Assembly: GCA_029339195.1 (NCBI GenBank)
Contig: JAPTJF010000238.1
Span: 29,365-93,364 of the forward strand
Direction: 5' to 3'
Source: Micractinium sp. NFX-FRZ
Lineage: Eukaryota > Chlorophyta > Trebouxiophyceae > Chlorellales > Chlorellaceae
DNA length: 64,000 nucleotides
Below are positions 7,149 to 20,800 of the stretch, piece by piece (positions within the stretch are counted from its first letter, which is position 1; every line of letters begins with the position of its first letter). The position numbers and the translations under genes are program-made. The notes below the pieces were generated by a model that searched no databases, was not told the DNA's origin, and worked only from the letters and a program-made list of their open reading frames with translations.

Positions 7149-9486
7149 ATGGAGGAGGGGATGGAGCCTGCTGTTCTTCAGCTGTCTGATTCTGCCGCAG
7201 ACTTTGTGGCAGGTTTGTGAGGCCTGCCTTAGCCATAGCAGCCTCCCGCGCGTTCCCTGGGAGCCGCCAGACTGCCGCAGCTCATCCGCCCTTAGCGTGC
7301 CGCCGCTGCGACCGCTGCCGCACCGCTCCTGACCACTGCTTCTGGTGGCCCTCCCCCCTCCACCACATTCCGCTGCCGCCTCCTTCACACCTATAACAGG
7401 CGGAATAGCAGGTGCCTGCGGCGTGATGGCCGGCCAGCCGCTGGACACTGTGCGCATCAGGCAGCAAGCTGGCGGCAGCGGCACCGGCGGCGCCCAGGCG
7501 GGCGCAGTGGTGCGGTCGATCCTGGCGGCAGAGGGCGCCCGCAGCCTCTTCCGAGGAATGGCGTATCCCCTGGCGACCGCTGCTCTGCAGGTGGGCAGAC
7601 CACAGACCGCTCTTGTTGGGCTGCCTGATGCAGCCGCAGCACCTGCACACGCTTTTGCTGTGCCGCTGCCCGGACGCTTCGATTTTGCCCTTCCCTCCCG
7701 GGTCCGCTCACTGTGCCCAGCGCTTGAGCGCTGCTTGCCCCTCTCCCTTGTGCAGAATGCGGTGGTGTTCCAAGCCTATGGCGCCGCCGCCCGCTTCATC
7801 ACAGGCGGTGCACCGCAGCAGCAGGAGCGGCAGGAGCAGCAGGGCCAGCAGCCGCCCGCGCGGTCGCTATCGCAGGTCTTCTGGGCCGGGTGCTTTGCTG
7901 GCGTCGTGCAGACGGTGAGTGCGCTCTTGGGGAAGTGGCAGGCTTAAGCATGGCATGGCAGGGGCGGCCGCAAGTGCACCTGCATCTGGCGCTGTCAGGT
8001 CAGTCCTGCACCCACCCGCCTGGCCTGCCACCTCGTTTCACCTCTGTGCCGCTGCCTGCTCTGCCCATCTGCACCCTTCCATTTGCTGCTTCCTTTGTAA
8101 TTGTCAATGTAGGAGGTGTTAGTGCCTTTTGTTCATTTTGAGGACTGGCTGAAGCTGCACACAGCATTTTCTTCACGATGTGTCCTACTCACCAACTTGC
8201 TTGTACTGTTGCAGGCCGTGGTGGTGCCTGTGGATCTCCTGAAGATCCGGCTTCAGCTGCAGACGGCGGTGCGCGGCGCCCCCGGCTACGTGGGGCCCCT
8301 GGCACTGCTGGCCGGCATACTGCGCAGCGAGGGGCCGCGAGGTGCGCCCTGGGCGAGATGCGGCTGGTGCTGCCTGCCTGCTCGTGTGCCTGTCTGGGCA
8401 CCCACAAGGCCAGCCCGCTGGCCTGCCAGCGTCTTCCTCTGGTGTGCAGCGGGCCATGAAGCTGAGTTCACAAGCCAGTGTGACCCTTTGCCCGGTGACA
8501 GCGCACCTTCTGCACCCTTCCCTCGCACCGCACCGACCCACCGCCAGTGCATGCCCCTCCCCCCGCTCCCCAGGGCTTTATCGAGGCACCGCCATCACAT
8601 GTGTGCGCGACTTCCCCTCCCACGGAGTCTATTTCAGTGTCTATGAGGGGGCCACGTAAGCGAGGAAGCTGCCCCATGCCCTGCCTGCTCTGTCTGCCTG
8701 TCCGCCCGCATGTCTGCCTTTCGGTGCTGCAGCTCTCTGGATCATCCCGCAAGCTGCAACCCTCCTGGCCCTTATGTGGCCACACGTGCTGCTCTTCCTC
8801 CCCAGCGCCGCTTGCCTCTCGCCTGCCTGCCCTCCCTCCTCACCGCCCAGTGCCTCCCTGCCTCCCTGCAGAGGGCTGCTCGACCCTGGGAGGCGCAGCA
8901 GCAATGCATTGGCGCTGTGGGCGGCGGGCGGCCTGGCAGGCGCGCTATCCTGGCTCAGCGTGTACCCCTTTGATTTCTTAAAGACACGCATTCAGGCAGC
9001 GGCTGCCGCGCAGTCGCCCTACAAAGGTGGGTGCGGTGGTCAGTGGGTGGGCGGGAGGGAGGGTGGCAGGCAGGCAGGCACATGGGTGGACGTTGGGTGA
9101 GCAGGCATATGCGGGATCGGGTGGAGCGCAGGCCTGCAGATGCAATGTGTGCCCTTCGAGCCAGCTCCAGGTGCTGCCCAAAGGCCGGGGTGTGCCTCTT
9201 TATCTCCCCACGCTGGGCAAGTACCAGCGGAATGCGTGCAGCCCCTGACAGCCGTCGCTGCTGGCTCGGTGGCCCTGCCGCAGGCTGGCTGGACTGCGCA
9301 CGGCAGGCCTACGTGGCAGAGGGTCCGGGCGTCTTCTTCCGAGGCCTCTCCACCACCCTGGGCCGGGCGTTTCTGGTCAATGGAGCAATTTTCACGGCAT
9401 ACGAGCTGTCCCACAAGATGGTGCGGCCACGACTTGACGCTGCTGCTAAACTCAGCGCCGATGATGCAGGTAGCACGACTGACTAG
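7149..9486 (+). CDS. Mitochondrial carrier (SLC25 family)
   Basis: Seven exons (7149-7212, 7400-7590, 7756-7914, 8215-8341, 8574-8655, 8872-9026, 9284-9486) encode 326 residues. Three ~100-residue carrier repeats are visible, each with the family signature in its first helix: PLDTVRIR near residue 34, PVDLLKIR near 140 and PFDFLKTR near 235. The start was chosen because a 21-codon first exon ending ADFVAG joins in phase to GIAGACGVMAGQPLD, the usual start of the first helix. The second signature and the wording around it resemble the SLC25A45/47/48 and plant acylcarnitine/basic amino-acid carrier branch, but I cannot fix the substrate. The product would sit in the inner mitochondrial membrane. 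A short Gln-rich insertion lies in the matrix loop of repeat 1/2. Confidence 0.93.
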
Positions 9487-10283
9487 TTTGTGCAGCCGCG
9501 CCGGCAGCAGAAGCCGCGTAACCTGCCGTTTCACAACAAGGGCCGCTTGTACCATCACTCCAGTCCGCCTGCAACCACCTGTATCCACTGGCGTGGCAAC
9601 CACCTGTACTGACTTGTACTCACCTGATACTCACTCCCACCAGCCTGCACAGTTTGCCCTGCACCTCACCCCACGGAGAGCTACAGCGCAACTCCTGATT
9701 TATGTCCCTCCCAGCATTGCATGTCGCCTGCAAGGGCGCCGACTTTCCAGCACACAGTGCACACCCGAAACCTGCCTCCTGTAACAAAACCCTTGGAGCA
9801 CCCTCGACGGCGGCGGGCAAGTCTGCTGGTGTGTCTGTGTTTCTGAAGGCTGCTGCTGCTTTGCCTTTGCTGTTGTTGCATGAATCGTCCGCCATGGGTA
9901 CTAGTAACTGTTCGGGACAACACGTTTAATATCGCGGTAAGTGAGACAGGGGTGGGAAACTGGTGGGGTAAAGCGTGATGCAGGGAGAAGCGGGTGGGCT
10001 GAGAAGGGATGAAGGCAGGTGGAAAGAATTGGGGCAGTGCATCATTATGCAGGCCACAGTAATGTTGTATACATCAGGGCATCAATTGAAAACAGCGCCA
10101 TTGGAAAGAAGAGGGCGATGAGCAGAGCATGCGACATGCACATGTATGGGTTTAGGTATGGTGATGGATCAGGGCGGGCAGAGTGCGAGCGGCCATGGCT
10201 TGTGGAATGCGCCCGGTGCAGCCGCCTGCACGGTGCCGACTGTGGTGACCACAGCACGAGAAGTCGCCACAACGTGGCGTGCC
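9487..10283. other. Convergent 3' intergenic region
   Basis: This lies between the carrier gene stop (9486) and the serine-protease stop (10284). It contains the carrier's likely poly(A) signal at 9780. I found no additional exon or RNA gene, and no TGTAA on the minus strand for the protease. Confidence 0.5.
9780..9784 (+). terminator. Poly(A) signal TGTAA of carrier gene
   Basis: TGTAA lies 293 nt past the stop codon of the carrier gene. TGTAA is the known green-algal polyadenylation signal. The assignment to this gene rests on position only. Confidence 0.55.
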
Positions 10284-13200
10284 TCACGCTGCCCAGCCCG
10301 TCCAGCCGTCGATCATGCCGTTGATGTGCTCCAGCTGGTCCGCCACCCTCGTGTAGTAGCTGTAAGGTTCAAAACAGAACTCCTTCCCCCAGCTCACCAC
10401 GCCCGTCAGCTCGCGGTTGGCATTCACCACGGGGCCGCCCGAGTCGCCGTGGCACGCGTGGCCGCCGTCGCTCACGCCCTGCTCGCCGGTGATGGTGCCC
10501 ATGCCAGCGCAGAAGTTGTCGGGGTAGGGCCCCGAAGGCACGGTGCAGGTGGTAGGGTCGTAGACTACGTTGGCTTGGCGGCACCCGGTGCAATCATGCA
10601 AGGCTTGCAATGCCGCCACGCTGTCGGCCCAGTCACTCAGTCCTGATGTACCGCCCTTCGGCTACTTCTCTTCTTCTCCTCCCTCCTCCTCTGTTCACGT
10701 TTTCGGCACTGCTTTCACCGTGTGTTTGACTCTTGCGGCCATGGATGCCTTTGGCCCGCGGGGGACCCCCAGCTTCCTGTTGTCGCACCCTCTACTGGCG
10801 CGGTGCCTTCACCGGTATGCGGTAGCCGGCAATCTGCGGATGTGGCACATGCGCGCAGCCGGCAATCTGCGGATGTGGCACATGCGCGCAGCGCGGCGCA
10901 GCCTGTCCTCACACGCCTTGCGGGGGCACGAGGCGGTGATCCTCCGCGAGCTGGCCGCAGTGCAGGGACCTGGCACCAGCGAGACGCTCAGCAAGCACGC
11001 GCTCAGTACCAGCGAGCTGCGCCTGCAGCTGCAGGAGCAGGCCCTGCCTGCAAGCAGCGGAGCCGCAGCAGCGGCGGCCGCGGCGGCCAGCAACATGGAG
11101 GCGGCGTCTGCAGGAGCGCCGGTTTGCCACCAGGCCGATGCAGCTGCTACAAACCGACTTTCCCGACACCGAGAAGTCCGCGGTGGTGAGCATTTGCCAG
11201 GGGAGGCAGGCAGGGCAGCTGGGTGCTGGCAGATGTGTGCATGCAAGGTGGCGCGTTCACGCGGCGGGAGCGATCCCTCCATCCACAAGAGGTTCTCACC
11301 TGCACGCGGCTCTCACTTGCTTCGCCCGATATCATCCCTGTTGTGAATGCAGGCCGGCTGGCAGGGGCAGTGCGTGGTGCTGCCGTACGACCACAATCTC
11401 TATGAGGACAGGGCGCTGGAGTACGATTGGCTCAGTCAGCCAGCGCCTGTTGATGCAACGGCAGCGGCAGCAGCCGCGGCAGCGGCAGGGATGCAGCGGC
11501 GGCGGCAGCAGCAGAGACCGTGCCCTTCCCCCGCAGCGTCCGTGTCAGGTGCGGTGCCGACTGCACAGTTGCATTTGGGCCTGCCGCGTGGGTGCTGGCC
11601 CTCTCGCTTGCCTGCCTGTCATCAAGCGGGTGACTGCCGCCTGACAGAGAGCACTGGCAGCCTGCCAGAGATGGGAGGTCGCAGGGTGTCCGATGGGTGG
11701 GTGCACGATAGGCAAGTTACTTGATGGGAGCACCACGATATGACGACGTTGCTCCCAAGATGGGGGCAACGTCTGCCCCACGATGGGCACAGGTGCTGCC
11801 TGCCATGGCTTGCCACCAGGGCTGGCAGGCAGCAACAGCTGTGTGGGACGAGCAGGTAGAAGAGGCAGATTATATCCTTGTGCTGTGCGATCATTTTTGA
11901 GACGCGCAGGCGTCTTTAAGCCGAAAGCAACCGCGTGGCCGGAAAAGAACAGCTGTCCCGACTGGCGCCAACGTGGCGGCCCGCGGTTTCAGCTTCGTTT
12001 CACCTCGTTGAGCTCATTGAGACGTTCTTGACACGCCTAGGATGTCCCAAGCAGCTTGTGAAGGAGTGGCGAGCCGGTCGAAGGCAGAGCGTGGCAGCCC
12101 CGGCTCTGCGCCCGCTCGGCGAGCACAGTAATACCCTCTCATATCCTAGGACGCCATCTGTAAACAGCAGATGGCGCTGCGTCGCGACTGAGACTTGGCG
12201 ATGCCAGTGGCAAGACTATGACGATGGGGAGGGCACGATGGGGTGCTGTTTACCGGCTTCCATGACGATGGGGTGATGGGGGCCAGCGGTGGGGCGATGG
12301 GGCGGACACCCTGCGGCCTGATGAGTGCTGGCAATGGGGGCATGCCGCAAATCATCACGGGCCCCTGCTGCATTTCCATATCACCACACCTGTGCATTTC
12401 ACGCCCTCCCTCCAGGCTGCTAGTGTATGATGACGAGCAGCAGCGGCAGCTGGAGCCTGATCTCCGGGAGATCGAGCGCTGGATCGCTGCCGAGCTGCAG
12501 CGGCCGTACGCCCTGTACTTGGACCCCGCAGGCGTGATGGCCAACGGCACGGACGCCCAGAAAGAGCTCTCCACCAAGCTACGCAGGTTGGCATTTTAAG
12601 GAGAGGCTGGGCCTGCTACGGGGCGGGGGTTTACACACCACGCCTGACAAGCATCTCCCGAGGGGCTACTCAACTGCTATGCCTGCCCTTGTTTTGCTTG
12701 CTGCCGGCTGCTGTTCTTTGCGCCCAGTTTTGCCCAAAAAGTCGTGGTTCCTGCCCCCTGCAGCGATCCAGATCTGGTCAAGTGGTTCCAAGCCAACGAG
12801 CCAGTGCTGAAGCAGTGAGTGAGATGGTGTGCAGGCCAGCAGTGGTGGGGCAGGGAAACGGCGGTGGGTCGGGCAGACGACCGGTCAATTCACGTGTGGT
12901 GCATGGGCTGAGACAATAAAGAGCAGGCAGACAGGGTCGGCCTGCAATCCTCCCGCCTGCATCTCATCTCCCCCGTCCCCGCTGCTCCCATGCAAAATCT
13001 ACCCCTCCACCCACCCTCCACCCCCACTCCCTCTCGCCTTCCGCCTCGCTCCCTCCGTTGTGCTTCCACAGGGACCCAGTGATTGCGTCCTTCTACGAGG
13101 ACCAGCCGCATCCCGCCGTGGCCAGCGTGCTAGAGCGGGACGCCGCCTGCCAGGCCGCCCTGCTGCGCGTGCTGACGCCGCTTGTGGAGGCCAAGGCCAA

Positions 13201-16200
13201 GGCCAAGGCGGCAGCAAATGTGGGCAGCCTCAAGCGCTCGGCCTCTGCTGCCGGTCTCAGCCTGCAGGACAGCGGCGACGCCAGCACCAGCACTGGCGTC
13301 AGCAGCAGCCCCGCCGTGAAGCGGTCGCGCGGGGGCCAGGGCATCCCATGGTGCGCAAGGGCATGGGTGTGGAGTCGGAGGAGCATGGGTGTGGAGTCTT
13401 AGGACGTCTAGCAGATGCCGAGGAGTGGCATGCCCAGCAGAGGCGGTGCATGATTGCAGAGCGTTGAATGATGCAAAGAGGTCACTGGTGATGCCGCGCG
13501 CAGGCAGTATGCACACTTATTGTTTCTGCCTTTCTGCCTGTCGTGGTACAAAGCCTTCAACCAACGCTCTTCTGCCCATTTCCATCTAATGCTGCAGGAG
13601 CGCTGCCGACATGAAGATTGTGCGCGAGCTGTACCACGTGGAGGGCCGGAGCTTCATTCAGGTGGGTGTTGACTGCGAGGGACGGGGCTCTGCGACAGAA
13701 GTCCAGTGGAGTGGCATTCCTGGCAGGCATTTTGCTCGTGTCCCTACCTGCCTTTGCGTGCTCGACTGCCCCAATTCATGCTCCACCAGCGTCCATCCCT
13801 GCAACAGCTTGACGCTCAGCCCTCTCACCCGCCTGGGTTCTGCAGATTGGCCGCAGTTTGGGCCGCGATCGCCACACCGTGAGGCAGCTGCTGAGCTAAT
13901 CACGCGCGGGCGGACGCACGCTAACGGACACCATGCTGCTCTCGCTGGAGGAGTTCAATGAGAAGGTGCGCCCTGTATTATTCTATTGGAGGAATGGTTG
14001 GATCGTACCCCAGTTTGCGAGGGATTGCTGTGACATTATAGCTGTGTGGAAGGGCATTTAGTGTCTAGTAGTGGGTCGCCGCATTTAGTGTCTAGAGTGG
14101 GTCGCCGCATTTAGTGTCTAGGGCGTGCTGCTTCACTGCTTCACTGCCAGGCCTTGGCTGGGTGCAGGCCAACAAAGTGTAACATAGCATTCTACCCGTC
14201 CATCTTCCCACACACCCGTGCAACTGCACCTGAGACCGCAGAGCCCCCCTGCGACCCCCTTCCTACAGATTCTCGTGGCGGAGCTGAAGGAGGCCAGCAA
14301 GAATGGCACCCTGGCCGAGATCATCGAGGCGGGGCTGGCAGCTCAGGCGGGCGTGGCGCCCGTGGAGCTCACCACAGCGCTGGAACATGATTGCCTGTCC
14401 AAGCTAGCCCCCGAGTTTGCGCACGCCTTCCGCCTCATGCGGGCGTCCTGCCTAAAGAACGTGTCGAGGGCGGCGCCCAAGCCGCCCCTGCAGCAGCAGC
14501 AGCAGCAGCAGCAGGCGGCCAGCAGCAGCGGCGCCGCCCAGCCGCCCAAGGGGCCACAGCAGCAGCAGACGGCCACCGGCGCCGGTGCCGCCAAGCCGCC
14601 CAAGCCGCCCCTGCAGCAGCAGCAGGCGGCCACCGGCGCCGGTGCCGCCAAGACGCCCAACCCGCCCCTGCAGCAGCAGCAGGCGGCCAGCAGCAGCGGC
14701 GCTGCCCAGCCGCCCAACCCGCCCCTGCAGCAGCAGCAGGCGGCCAGCAGCAGCGGCGCTGCCAAGCCGCCCAAGCCGCCCCTGCAGCAGCAGCAGGCGG
14801 CCAGCAGCAGCGGCGCTGCCCAGCCGCCCAAGCCGCCCCTGCAGCAGCAGCAGGCGGCCAGCAGGAGCGGCGCCGCCAAGCCGCCCAAGCCGCCCCTGCA
14901 GCAGCAGCAGGCGGCCAGCAGGAGCGGCGCCGCCAAGCCGCCCAAGGGGCCCCTGGTGGCCAAGCCGGTCGCAAAGGGGAAGGGAATTGCACAGTACTTC
15001 AGGTCCCTGCCTGGGAGCATTGGCAGCCAGGGCATGGGCAGCCAGGCCACGCCCGCCCCGGGGCAGCGGCCGCGGCGGCGGCTGAGCTGGCAGCGAGCCT
15101 CACCCCCCAAGACCTGGCTGACCTGGATGACTGGAGCTGAGGCGTTGCAGCCTGGCATGTGCCCGCCACAGCACACGCTTTGCCTCGGCAGCACAGTGCA
15201 AGTATGTGCAGCATGGCTGGCAGCTCGAGTCGATGGTGGCAGCCAGCAGCAGTAGCCACGGTAGCTCCGTTTCCGGCAATGCAATCGCATCCGGTCTTGT
15301 CTGGCCCGTATGCGGGCATGTGCACATCCCATCAGTATTAACACGAGGACCACTGCTGGTCGGGCGCCCTCTTTTCTGTACCAATGCGAGGCGGCGGCCA
15401 GGGTCTGTGTATTCTTTTTCCGCTGTGACATGCGCTGACACTGTGACATGGTACCTCCTTCCCCCTTCTTTTGTTTTCCCAACCCTGCCATCTTGTCCAT
15501 CTGCCCTAACCGCTTCTTCTGCCCTCCTGTGTATGCACCCAGGCCAATGTTAAATATGTGGCACTGTGGCAAGCGTATGCGTCGGACCATGTCGGTGAAC
15601 ATGCGGGTGGTGGCGTCGGGAGCGCCCTCCCCGGAGGCCGTGGCGCCGTAGCCGGCAGCGTAGACCACATCGTTGGGTGATGGGCCGGAGGTGGCCAGAG
15701 TGACGGGCGCCACGTCGGCAGCGGTGGTGAGGCCAATCAGGCCCAGGTCGTCTGCAGTCTGGTCCCTGGGACCTGCCAGCTGCTTGTAGCCTGCGGGCAG
15801 GGGAGATGAGGGGGCAGGCAAGGCAGGGGGCGTGTGAGCACGGGGGCTGGGGGGATGAAGAGGGACAGGGGTCAGCAGGCAGACGAGGATGGATGCTGGT
15901 GGTGCCAGCTGGCAGGGACAGGCCAAGCAGGGGCGCTCCATCCTGGGCACGCATGCAGCGCAGCCAGCACAGGACAAAGGGGGAGAGTTGCCAGGCACGC
16001 ACGGCAAAGACGAATAGGGTGCAAGAGAGGCATGGGAGGGAGGCAGGGAAGAAAGGAGAAGCTCACCATTGTGTGGATACAGGGTGCCGCAGCTGTATTG
16101 CATGCCGTTGACCTCCACAAACAGCACGTCAGCACACGTCCTCTGGACGCCCTCCTTGTTGAACAAGCAGTGGGCGGCCGTCAGGATGTGTGCCTGCAGG

Positions 16201-16872
16201 TGAGGGGCGGCAGGGGGGTTGAGCTCTCGAGTCATGAAAGGGGAGGTGCGCACAAGGGGTGCGGCCATGAGCTGCCACTTCACCTGCCCTTCAGCCTTCC
16301 TTTTCTGCCTGCCTGCCCACTTGTCTGCTCACGCTCGAGTCATGCAAGGGGTGGCGCGCACGAGTGGCGGCCGACAGCCAGCCAGCCTGCCTGCCTGCCT
16401 GCCTGCCTGCAGGCCCAATTGCTGCTCAGCCTGTCCGGCCGCTCACCGGGCCAACGAGGGAGCCGGTGCAATAGGAGTCGGTGAACCTGATGTAGGCTGT
16501 GAAGTAAGCCCAGTTGGTGTCATCGACTGCTCCATCTATGATGCGGTTTGTGGCCTGGCTGTCGGGCAGCGCGCCAGCTGGCGCCGGGGCTGGGGCAGCG
16601 GCGGCAGCGGTAAGCTTGCCAGTGCGCAGCAGAGCACGGCGTCCTGCGCATGGATAGGGGTGGTGGGGTGAGGTCAGGTTGCTTGTTATGTTGCACTCGT
16701 GAGGGGCAAAGCCGCCAAGAGAGCACATGGCTTGAGCTTTGGGTGCCCGTGTGCGAGCACTTGGAGCACAGGGCAACAGCGGCGGCGGGTGCGGCAGGGA
16801 GGGCTCACCAAGGACAGAAGGAGCTGCAGCGCCTAGCAGCAAGCAAAGGAGGAGGATTGAGGGAAGTCGCAT
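10284..16872 (-). CDS. Secreted S1 (chymotrypsin-fold) serine protease, split by nested gene
   Basis: Five exons (16872-16809, 16643-16447, 16193-16067, 15790-15539, 10642-10284) give 332 residues in frame. Exon 1 encodes a signal peptide (MRLPSILLLCLLLGAAA). Activation would be after Arg55 (NRIIDGA). The triad is His95 (LTAAHC, exon 3), Asp144 (DDLGLIGL, exon 4) and Ser281 (CHGDSGGP, exon 5). The residue at the S1-pocket position 189 is His275 rather than Asp, so trypsin specificity is unlikely. The last intron is ~4.9 kb and contains a whole plus-strand gene. Without joining exon 5, the first part has no catalytic Ser and the last part has no signal peptide, His or Asp. The phase across the long intron agrees (1 and 1), but its acceptor at 10643 lacks a good pyrimidine tract. 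Alternative: two broken gene pieces. Confidence 0.75.
10741..15255 (+). CDS. Nested gene: Myb/SANT-like protein with Pro/Gln repeats
   Basis: I do not recognise the family. Well-supported exons are 11353-11548 (end uncertain), 12416-12586, 12764-12814, 13072-13350, 13598-13661, 13846-13965 and 14269-15255; the last five junctions agree in phase. Across 13350/13598/13846 the protein reads WSAADMKIVRELYHV, then GRSFIQIGRSLGRDRHTV, a Myb/SANT-like helix-turn-helix, suggesting a nuclear DNA- or chromatin-binding role. The tail carries 19-residue Pro/Gln repeats. Problems: the 5' exon opens with MDAFGPRGTPS at 10741, but the frame that splices on (MQLLQTDFPDTEKSAV, from 11138) is shifted by one; the 11548-to-12416 junction does not fit in phase, so an exon may be missing (11993 on is a candidate); and a TAA at 13897 lies in frame. 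The C-terminus may end at 15255, or at 15140 in another frame (LTPQDLADLDDW). Confidence 0.55.
10826..10891 (+). repeat. 33-bp perfect tandem duplication in first exon
   Basis: Two identical adjacent 33-bp units sit in the 5' exon of the nested gene, adding a second copy of an 11-residue block (GNLRMWHMRAA) without changing frame. Being perfect, the duplication is probably recent. Confidence 0.9.
14482..14946 (+). repeat. 57-bp coding minisatellite (PPLQQQQAASSSGAAKPPK)
   Basis: Eight copies of a 57-bp unit encode 19-residue repeats in the last exon of the nested gene. Copies 1 and 2 are irregular: one has a longer Gln run and the next has lost PPL. The last two are identical and carry Arg for Ser. 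No copy shifts the frame, and the antisense frame is also open through the array. Confidence 0.9.
16220..16411. repeat. Intron-2 duplication and (CCTG)n tract in protease gene
   Basis: A ~43-bp segment at about 16222-16264 (ctcgagtcatgaaaggggag) recurs at about 16333-16375 with a few changes. It is followed by a CCTG/GCCT tetranucleotide run at about 16385-16411, next to the exon-2 donor. Confidence 0.7.
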
Positions 16873-17844
16873 GATGCTGGCTTTGTGAGGGCAGGGACCG
16901 GGGAGGGGCCTGGCTGGCAGGCGGGCCTGAGCGGCGGCGCTGTGTGGAAGGGCGGGTCTGGCAAAGTAGAGCAGGCGAGGAGGCTGGCTTGCTTGGAGCG
17001 CTCGGGTTGTGTGATGAAAGCATTGTGGACGCCCCTTTTATGCTTCTCTGGTGAACCGCGGCGGAGCACCGCGGTTGGGCCGCTTCACGGCCGCTTCCTG
17101 CCCTAGGCCAGCCGAGGAAAGAGCTAGCGCCTCAGCCCGGGCTCAACGGTGGTAGCCCTGCATTCAGAGACCAAAAGAAGCAGCACACATGGCGTCACAG
17201 CAGCCAGGACTGGCGGTGCCGTCCGTCTTGTGCGCCTGGCCGGTCTTCCTTCGCCTTTGCAATCAAGCCTCTGCCCGCTGCCTTGAAGGTTGAGAGCAGC
17301 ACCCTGGTCCCAGCCAAGCCTGCAAGTGAGCCAGTTTGCCAGAGCCCACTGAGCAGTCGCCTCAGGCAGTACCTCCCGCCAGGTGCGCACTGGAGTGCAT
17401 GCAGGCAACAGGCAGGCTCGGTCGCAAGGCTTCAGCTAGGTGGGAGCCTACCTGCAGCAGCCTGCGCCAGAGATGGCACATCCGCCACCATGAATCAGGC
17501 ATTTGCCGGAACTGCTGGTTCCTCCGCCCCCCTGCTTCTGCCGTCCCCACGCCACATCACCCCTGGGTGTGAGAGCCCGCTACTTTGTTGAGAGCTGTTG
17601 TTAATGAAGGGGTGAAATTAACAGGGTGCAGGCAATTGGGCTGAAGTGGCACAGCAGTGTTACACAGTATGCGGCCTTGCCGCACAGCAAATCCCAGCAG
17701 AAGGTGAAACCCGGGATGGGGAAGAGAGACATGTCGCAGTGTTGTCAAGCGTGGGTCAGGGTGAGGTGGGGTTTCTATCGAGGGGTTGCAGATTTCCCCC
17801 AAAGTCTCATTGCTCGTAATGTTCGTACAGTCAGGACCTCACAC
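16873..17844. other. Protease promoter region and 3' side of coiled-coil gene
   Basis: Both flanking genes are on the minus strand. The part near 16873 should hold the protease promoter. The part near 17844 should hold the 3' UTR of the coiled-coil gene. I see no exon or RNA gene in between. Confidence 0.5.
17660..17664 (-). terminator. Poly(A) signal TGTAA of coiled-coil gene
   Basis: TGTAA on the minus strand lies 181 nt past the stop codon at 17845, a usual distance for green-algal 3' UTRs. Confidence 0.5.
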
Positions 17845-20800
17845 TCACAGGTGCAGCGAGTCGGCGGTGGCATAGCGTGCACGCAGCGGGACGTCGTCGT
17901 CAATGGACGGGTCGCCTGCCAGCCCCCACTGCTGCTGCTGCTCCTGCTGGTGGAAGCCAAAGCGGTCGCTGTGGACAGCCGCCGCCGCCTCCTCCTCTGC
18001 CTGCATTGCAAAGCGGCTGCGCCCGCCGTACCCATGGGCGCCGCCGTGCACCGCTGCACGCGACTGTGGGGTGAGCAGGCGGTCGAGCTTCTCTGCAATG
18101 CTGGCCGCCTTGCGCCCAGCCTCTGCCATTGCCTCGCTGGCAGAGCCGGCGCAGCCGCCCCGGCCGGCATCGCGCCTGCCAGCACCAATGGCCCAGCTGT
18201 CGCCCTGGCTGGCACCGCCGCTGCTGCTGGCCTCCTGCACTCCGTGGCTGCTGCCCCACGTGCGCTCCTCCTGCTCCTGTTGGGGCTGCTGGTACTGCTG
18301 AGGCTGCTGCTGGTACTGTTGGTACTGCTGAGGCCGCTGGTGGTTGTGCTGCGGCCGGTGCTGCTGCTGGTGGTGCTGCTGCTCCTCGCTGCCGCTGCTG
18401 CTGCCCTCCCGTGCCGCCAGCAGGGCGGAGGACAGCGTGCGGTGGCGCCTCAGCACACGGCGCAGGCCCTTGCTCAGCTCCTCCACAAGTCGGTTGAGCC
18501 GCTGGCTGCTGGCACCACCCTCCCTGCAAGCAAGGGAGCAAGCAAGCCAGGCGAGGGCAGCAGGGTCAGGTGTGTGGATGTATTGTGGCATGACAGCAGA
18601 GAGCCGCCAATGCAGTGCACAAGATGCAAGTTGCACAAGATGCAAGTTGCACACACCCATCTGCCGTTGCCTACTCCCTCAAACGGCTGCACTGCCCAGC
18701 GGCACACATGTGCATGTACATGCCAACTTGGAAGCAAAGCATGGGGTCCCTCACCCGTCTGCCGCCCCGCTGCCGCACAGGTCGGCCTCGCTGTAGTCCT
18801 CCAGCACCCACTTGACCTCAGACAGCAGGTCGGACAGCCTGCAGGCATCAAGGGGAGCAGCAGGGCCATGGGTGTGTGGTCTCACGGCTGGTGAGATGGC
18901 GGGCAGGCAGGGAACCAGGCAGGCGGGGATGTGATGCAGGCAGGTGGCGCAGGCGGGCAGCCGTCATGAGAGGTCAAGAACATTTTTCAGGAGTGCCCAG
19001 GAGCTTGGACAGATGCTGGCACCTGCTGCCAACCCCTCACAGCTTGCCCCACCATCCTCTCACCTGTACCGCAGCAGCGCCAGGTTCTGCTCAATCTCAG
19101 CGGTCTGTGCCTGCCAGCGGGCGGCAGCTCCCTCCATTGCCCCAATCGTTGCCTGAAGCGAGGGGACCGTGAGAGGGGCTTGAGCGGCAGAGCGAGTGTG
19201 CAAGAGAGGGGCGCACGGGGCAGGCCAGTGGCCCCACACATGTGCTGCCCCCACGACTCTCAATGCTCACCTCGTACTGCAGCACGCGCTGCTGCAGGGC
19301 GCGCACATCTGCGGGCGGGTGTTCCCGCGCTGCTGCCGGGCCGACCGTGCCAGGGGTGGCGGGAGAGGCTGCCATGGCTGCTGCCTGCTGCTGCCACTGC
19401 TTTGACGCAGCTCTGCCCCCGCCTGCCAGGGCCAGCTTGTTCAGCGAGGCCCAGACCTTCTGCAGCCCCAGCTGGCGCAGCGCGGCGCTGTGCGCTGCCA
19501 TCAGCGGCGCCAGCTCATCCGCCAGGCTGCCGGCCTCCTGACGGCCTGCAGTTTGGAAAGTGGATGGCGTGTCAACTTGGACGCTGGTTACACGCTGGAA
19601 GCAGCGGAGTGCATGTGCGTGGGCACAAGAGCCAGAAAAAGAATTGCACAGCAGAGCAGGCAAGCAAGCTCTCGCATTCAGCCGGCCGCACGCCCGGCCC
19701 CCAAACCACCCACCTCCGACTTGGTCCATGGTCACAGCCAGTGCCAGCTTGCAGATGGCCTTGAGCAGGCGCTTCTCCACCTGCCACACATCCGCCTCGC
19801 TGGTGCTGCCGCTGAGCCCGCTGTGCTGTGGCGCAGGAGAGGCTGCGACTGGCGTGGGAGCCGGCAGGCCCAGCAGCAGCTCGGCATCACCGCTGGCGCC
19901 CGCCTCCCCACCTGCAGACAGTCGCTGCACCACCACCTGCAGCTTGCCAATGGCGGCCTGGGCGGCTGCCAGCCGTGCCGCTGCATCGCTGCTCTCCTGC
20001 TGCGCCGCTGCCAGCTGTCCTGCCAGCTGCTCCCGTTCCGCCTCCAGGAAGGCAGTGTACTGGTTGGGGCGGTTGCCGCCAGGTGGCGTGCCGTGGCCGC
20101 TGCTGCCAGCCAGGTGCTCCTCCAGCATGCGCCACAGCTGGGCATTCTCTGCCTTCAGGGCCTGCAGCTTCTCCACTGTCTGAGACAGCAGCTCCCGGCG
20201 AGCCGCCAGGCTGTGGCCGTCGCCCGCGCCGCCCGCAGCGGCTGCCGCAGGAGACGCCACCTCGATGCGCTGCAGCAGGTGCATCTGGGCCTGCAGCCGG
20301 CTGCTGAGGCCCTCCAGCACGTCGTGCACCTGCAGCACAAAAGCGGGCGGGACAGGCCAGGGTGTGAGAGGTCAGCAACTTTGAGCAGAGGGCAGGAACA
20401 GGAGGCGAGCGGCACAAGCCGTGATCCAACCCTCCAAGCTGGCGCATGGCACTCTCGCAGGTCCGCACATGCCTGCCCCAGCCTCGACTCTGCACAGCAT
20501 GTGCGCCACCTTCCGCCACCTTCAGTTGCCTGGTCGACCAATACCCACTCTAGCACCACACCCAGGCACCCACCTGCGCCTTGGCCAGCAACCGCTCCCG
20601 CTCCTCCACCGCTGCATCCAGCTGTGCCTCCACCGACCGCCGCCGGTCCTCCTCTGCTTCCAGCTGCTGCCACATGCGCTCCGTCTCGCCCTCCGCATGC
20701 TGCGCCTCGGAGTGAGCCTGCTCGGCTGCTGCCTGCGCCGCCTTGGCTGCCTCGGTCTGCTCTGCCAGCTGAGCGCACAGCTCCGCCTCGTGCTGCTGCG

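What the first reader, a model, noticed from the sequence alone, without database searches (positions are those of the whole stretch)
10284..16872. Serine protease interrupted by a complete antisense gene in its last intron
Signal peptide, activation site, catalytic His and Asp lie at 15539-16872, while the GDSGGP block and C-terminus lie at 10284-10642, all on the minus strand. The 4.9 kb between carries a multi-exon plus-strand gene. Joining donor 15538 to acceptor 10643 keeps phase and yields 332 residues with a full triad, so an intron-nested gene is the simplest reading. The alternative is a protease gene broken by insertion. Mutual antisense expression is possible.
Basis: partly seen in the sequence, partly recalled or inferred. 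Interest (0 to 1): 0.8.

Follow-up and report, generated by a model that had tools for sequence, protein, structure and literature searches.

The report
Algal protease gene split by insertion
A trypsin-like protease gene of a green alga is cut in the middle of a coding exon by about 5,000 extra bases carrying an unrelated gene on the other strand; the relatives compared have no intron there, so it looks like a gene broken by an insertion rather than one gene housed in another's intron.

Summary
The last-intron reading is not supported. Five of five homologues aligned at the site read straight through TDM|VVYDP. Of six own-genome paralogue loci examined, four match across the site without a break; two could not be judged. 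The join adds 41 residues seen in none of these relatives, all from the ends of the intervening DNA; they would fall inside a predicted beta-strand of the fold. The gap is therefore best read as a clean insertion of about 5,016-5,019 bp (10569-15587) into a continuous exon, no protease codon lost. The ends show no inverted repeats and at most a 2-3 bp target duplication. The insert carries a single-copy plus-strand gene with strong coding signal and no detected homologue. It is not shown complete: my exon chain needs two frame changes and meets a stop. The proposed acceptor is poor (5 of 15 pyrimidines against 9-14 at nine local acceptors). Most likely the protease is disrupted, perhaps recently. 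De novo intron creation is not excluded; RNA reads would decide.

The parts
16809..16872 (-). protease exon 1 (signal-peptide-like start)
   Evidence: splice and translation; aligned with P0001/P0002
16447..16643 (-). protease exon 2 (NRIIDG activation site)
16067..16193 (-). protease exon 3 (AAHC, catalytic His)
15588..15790 (-). protease exon 4, part homologous to relatives (catalytic Asp, ending ...FTDM)
15585..15587 (-). GTC at the 5' side of the break; possible one-mismatch partner of GTA at 10566-10568 (2-3 bp target duplication not excluded)
   Evidence: sequence; no longer shared word at the junction
10569..15584 (.). inserted segment, about 5,016 bp (5,019 if one GTN is counted)
   Evidence: absent from 5 of 5 homologues aligned and from the 4 of 6 paralogue loci that could be judged; ends single copy in the genome
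   Evidence: no counterpart in the homologues aligned
   Evidence: no counterpart in the homologues aligned; weak acceptor
10284..10568 (-). 3' half of the protease exon (VVYDP...GDSGGP...stop), 94 aa
10741..15255 (+). orphan gene or gene remnant carried by the insert; coding-like stretches, limits read by eye, about 10741-11185, 11353-11548, 12416-12586, 12764-12814, 13072-13350, 13598-13661, 13846-13899, 14269-15255
   Evidence: coding score 50.7 against 1.7-9.9 in 10 shuffles; single copy; frame changes and stop seen
11649..12348 (+). multi-copy repeat lying in an intron of the insert's gene
   Evidence: 17-nt inverted repeat 11676-11692/12303-12319

Best explanation
About 5.0 kb of DNA carrying a plus-strand gene was inserted cleanly, with no loss of protease codons, into a continuous coding exon of a secreted trypsin-like (S1) protease gene, between the codons of TDM and VVYDP. 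Shown: continuity of the site in the homologues and in the paralogues that could be judged, collinearity and completeness of both halves, single-copy insert ends, and coding signal on the plus strand. Inferred: the insertion is fairly recent, and the protease is now disrupted. Minus-strand transcripts would read on into the insert, giving a product without the catalytic Ser, or at best a spliced product with a foreign graft in a core strand. How the DNA got in is open: end joining of a displaced fragment, or an element whose ends are not recognisable.
For: Five of five homologues aligned at the site (P0001-P0005, the top 5 of 49 hits) go straight through TDM|VVYDP or its equivalent. Of six own-genome paralogue loci examined, C130, C22, C407 and C316 match across the site in one open frame; C293 and C27 gave no match reaching across it. 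The halves abut exactly, 197 + 94 residues, with no residue missing at the junction against P0001. The break falls between residues 209 and 210 of P0001, inside model strand 204-211 of a chymotrypsin fold. The intervening 4,896 bp compare with 165-276 bp for the gene's three other introns. No uninterrupted allele was found in the 66 Mb assembly.
Against: Both halves are free of stops and frame shifts over 291 codons and keep the triad and GDSGGP, which a long-dead gene would not. The relative-rate test is inconclusive: only with P0002 as outgroup does the 3' half look faster (9 window-unique against 2 P0001-unique sites; Fisher p 0.057), other outgroups p 0.25-0.64, the C130 exon leaning the other way (p 0.51). 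No transposon ends were found. The donor GTGCAT is acceptable (one of three sites in 14345-15600 with a hexamer from my list of strong donors), so some splicing cannot be excluded. Two paralogue loci (C293, C27) are undecided, and the C293 profile hits break between positions 140 and 165, near the site, which could be an intron there or unmatched sequence. No RNA data.
Confidence: 0.82

Rival explanations
1. Intron-nested gene: the protease has a 4.9 kb last intron, spliced 15538 to 10643, housing an antisense gene; the 41 extra residues are a species-specific loop.
For: Frame kept and 332 aa with full triad; donor GTGCAT acceptable; both halves undecayed.
Against: No break at this site in 5 of 5 homologues aligned or in the 4 of 6 paralogue loci that could be judged; poor acceptor; extra residues fall inside a core strand of the model.
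Confidence: 0.07
2. De novo intron: the insertion hit an exon but was afterwards (or at once) removed by splicing at sites in its ends, so a working protease with a short graft survives and the insert's gene became nested.
For: Undecayed halves; 23 in-phase GTR/YAG pairs in the flanking open frames; insertion of elements into exons is known to create introns (PMC9860276, passages seen).
Against: No strong acceptor near the 3' side; since every listed acceptor lies inside the insert, any listed pair leaves extra residues in the strand (arithmetic); 5 kb is far larger than described Introner families (median 30-654 nt).
Confidence: 0.12
3. The insert is an autonomous mobile element whose own gene is the plus-strand gene (a statement about the insert's origin; it can hold together with the best explanation).
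For: Clean insertion with a possible 2-3 bp target duplication; weak helix-turn-helix similarity (Sigma70_r4 E 0.0085, HTH_38 E 0.024, both below cut-off).
Against: Single copy in the genome at DNA and protein level apart from an internal repeat and low-complexity matches; no terminal inverted repeats; no transposase domain at Pfam cut-off.
Confidence: 0.2
4. Assembly artefact: chimeric contig.
For: The tools here give no read data, so it cannot be excluded directly.
Against: Both halves lie in order and strand on one contig, abut to the codon, no N in 9001-18500, no other near-identical copy of either half in the assembly.
Confidence: 0.04

Closest known systems
S1 (chymotrypsin/trypsin-like) serine proteases, algal secreted branch (Micractinium hypothetical proteins P0002, P0003)
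   Same: Both halves match Pfam Trypsin; P0002 is 47% identical over 98% of the joined query
   Different: Coding frame interrupted by about 5.0 kb at TDM|VVYDP
Opposite-strand genes nested in introns of animal genes (PMC8467205, passages seen)
   Same: An opposite-strand gene lies within another gene's span; opposite-strand nesting is the commoner kind in human and mouse (220 of 296 and 193 of 248)
   Different: That paper says most nested genes arise by insertion of young duplicates into introns of existing genes; here no ancestral intron is seen and the inserted gene has no detected parent
Introners: elements that create introns by inserting into exons (PMC9860276, passages seen)
   Same: Insertion into an exon
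   Different: Introner families are short (median 30-654 nt) and multi-copy (5 to more than 2,000 per genome); this insert is about 5.0 kb, single copy and carries a gene

Membership tests
S1 serine protease (gene of origin) | His, Asp, Ser catalytic blocks and chymotrypsin fold | tested here: met
   AAHC, DDLGLIGL, GDSGGP present across the halves; homologue P0001 models as chymotrypsin fold
S1 serine protease (functional product of this locus) | One continuous product bearing all three residues | not testable with these tools
   Needs RNA or protein data; sequence argues against
Intron-nested gene | Host gene has an intron at the site in its family | tested here: not met
   No extra residues in 5 of 5 homologues; one open frame across the site in 4 of 6 paralogue loci, 2 undecided
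Intron-nested gene | The gap is spliced out of this gene's own transcript | not testable with these tools
   No RNA data; acceptor weak, donor acceptable
Intron-nested gene | Internal gene complete | tested here: inconclusive
   Coding signal strong but exon chain needs two frame changes and meets a stop
Introner | Multi-copy family of similar introns | tested here: not met
   Insert ends single copy; inside the insert only a 700-bp repeat and low-complexity stretches match elsewhere
TIR DNA transposon | Terminal inverted repeats | tested here: not met
   Best end-to-end scores reached by 394, 244, 387 and 457 of 500 random pairs for 40, 60, 100 and 140 nt (overlapping random pairs were skipped but stay in the 500)
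TIR DNA transposon | Target site duplication | tested here: inconclusive
   Only GT, or GTC/GTA with one mismatch, shared at the two sides
Helitron | A|TC...CTRR|T ends (hallmark recalled) | tested here: not met
   Read by eye at both ends and strands; no program run
Retrocopy or LINE | Intronless copy or poly-A end | tested here: not met
   Plus gene has apparent introns and no poly-A/T at either end, by eye

The most novel reading that the evidence does not exclude
A 5-kb gene-bearing fragment landed in a coding exon and was made into an intron in one step, so that the protease survives with a foreign graft in its second barrel while an orphan gene became nested: simultaneous birth of an intron and of a nested gene pair outside any pre-existing intron.
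Probability: 0.1. Interest if true: 0.6.

Novelty: new member of a known kind. Interest (0 to 1): 0.33.

Why it matters
It turns an apparent nested gene pair into a single event at a named codon junction where an exon was split. Because both halves are still undecayed, the locus can show what follows such an insertion: loss of the enzyme or rescue by splicing. It also warns that frame-keeping joins across large gaps are weak evidence for introns in a GC-rich genome (90 in-phase pairs here).

Tried and rejected
Looked for terminal inverted repeats and target duplications: none beyond 2-3 bp at the junction. Looked for further copies of the insert or its ends: only an internal repeat and low-complexity matches. 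Looked for relatives of the plus-strand gene in the own genome, the protein collection, viral contigs and prokaryote genomes: none except its own exons and one weak own-genome match (E 0.11). Rfam over 10000-17200: none at gathering score. Relative-rate test of decay: inconclusive. The third protein search, with the neighbouring carrier, had 73% as best hit, so this species seems not to be represented in the protein collection and the absence of the joined product there says nothing about splicing. TGTAA (algal polyadenylation signal, recalled) occurs once on the minus strand of the insert (TTACA at 12631) and not in the roughly 880 bases after the protease stop: too weak to use. Five paper searches: their listings show no paper on this locus; the search for nested gene + intron + Chlorella held 2 papers, of which I saw passages of one (PMC3488318) and did not open the other (PMC12768974).

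Full report
WHAT WAS CLAIMED AND WHAT IS THERE. The window is a stretch of a 66 Mb, 838-contig genome. Pfam Trypsin matches the 5' half (E 1.4e-10) and the 3' half (E 2e-11). So the halves are real and belong together.

THE SITE HAS NO INTRON IN THE RELATIVES THAT COULD BE JUDGED. A search with the joined protein returned 49 homologues. I aligned the best five at the site (P0001 57%, P0002 Micractinium sp. CCAP 211/92 47%, P0003 Micractinium tetrahymenae 45%, P0004 45%, P0005 28%). All five run straight from TDM (or TDL) to VVYDP (or LVYDP, EVFAD); the joined model alone has 41 residues in between. P0002 and P0004 are near-identical in the 3' half (86 of 89), so the five are not five independent witnesses. 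These are proteins: they show that no extra residues are there, not the exon structure. The exon structure comes from the same genome. Of 30 own-genome trypsin-domain matches I examined six loci other than this one. C130 reads ADMVVQDP and C22 reads YTNLTVIQS in one open frame; C407 and C316 also match homologues across the site without a break. C293 and C27 gave no match reaching across the site, so they are undecided; the C293 profile hits break between positions 140 and 165. The ancestral gene most likely had no intron here.

THE BREAK. On the minus strand the 5' half ends ...GAC ATG GTC and the 3' half resumes GTA GTC TAC, so no protease codon is missing at the junction: 197 + 94 residues against a continuous homologue. 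The inserted DNA is 10569-15584, with GTC/GTA as a possible 2-3 bp duplication (5,016-5,019 bp). The two ends share no inverted similarity beyond chance and no longer direct word at the junction. Each end occurs once in the genome.

SPLICING. The donor GTGCAT is acceptable. The acceptor has 5 pyrimidines in 15 against 10-12 at the three other protease introns and 9-14 at six carrier introns; 155 of 185 YAG sites on the insert's minus strand are at least as good. That call took the insert as 10572-15592, a few bases off the final limits. The other protease introns are 165, 253 and 276 bp long.

STRUCTURE. The homologue P0001, modelled with 20 aligned sequences (mean pLDDT 76, pTM 0.76), matches solved chymotrypsin-fold proteases (best Foldseek E 2.6e-13, human chymase). 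The break lies between residues 209 and 210, inside strand 204-211 (mean pLDDT 88 for residues 201-210). That a 41-residue graft there would be harmful is inference; the joined product itself was not modelled.

THE INSERTED GENE. A simple exon-chain score gave 50.7 for the insert's plus strand, 2.7 for its minus strand, and 1.7-9.9 for 10 block shuffles; the neighbouring carrier gave 48.1. The weights were hand-set, carrier and protease exons were the training set, and the chain found for the carrier was not fully right, so this shows coding signal and no more. My exon chain, drawn by eye, passes from one frame to another near 11109 and 11480-11500 and meets TAA at 13897-13899; assembly errors or other exon limits could account for this. 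The gene is single copy and has no homologue at E 1e-3 in the protein collection (7,996 best-sharing candidates scored), viral contigs or prokaryote genomes, although proteins of Micractinium and Chlorella variabilis are in that collection. Weak helix-turn-helix similarity is below Pfam's cut-offs.

IS THE PROTEASE DEAD? Neither half has decayed (291 codons open). A relative-rate test against P0001 was not significant: 3' half 9 against 2 with outgroup P0002 (Fisher p 0.057 against the 5' half); p 0.25 to 0.64 with P0003-P0005 and 0.51 with the C130 exon, which leans the other way. So either the insertion is recent or something still selects for both halves. The species seems absent from the protein collection (carrier best hit 73%), so the lack of a joined product there is uninformative.

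VERDICT. A gene split by insertion, best read as disruption; nested-by-splicing remains possible mainly as a newly made intron. Literature: most nested genes are said to arise by insertion into existing introns (PMC8467205, passages); exon insertions that create introns are known as Introners, short and multi-copy (PMC9860276, passages); nested genes in animals are thought to accumulate neutrally (PMC3488318, passages).

Noticed in passing
window 11649-12348: Multi-copy repeat of about 700 bp inside an intron of the inserted gene, with a 17-nt inverted repeat near its ends (CGCAGGGTGTCCG); best other copy C232:63070-63904 at 89-93%, plus shorter pieces and several 66-bp end fragments.
   Followed up: partly
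window 14502-14955: 57-bp unit repeated 8 times, coding a Gln/Pro/Ala/Lys-rich array in the last exon of the inserted gene.
   Followed up: no
window 14343-16328, minus strand: The frame of the protease 5' half stays open far into the insert (661-aa stop-to-stop frame), antisense to the repeat array, so read-through would give a long chimeric product.
   Followed up: no
window 10817-10897: 33-bp unit in 2.5 tandem copies near the start of the inserted gene.
   Followed up: no
window 7149-9486, plus strand: Neighbouring gene is a mitochondrial carrier (BAC2-like), best hit 73% identical, from Micractinium tetrahymenae, which places the unnamed species near Micractinium.
   Followed up: yes
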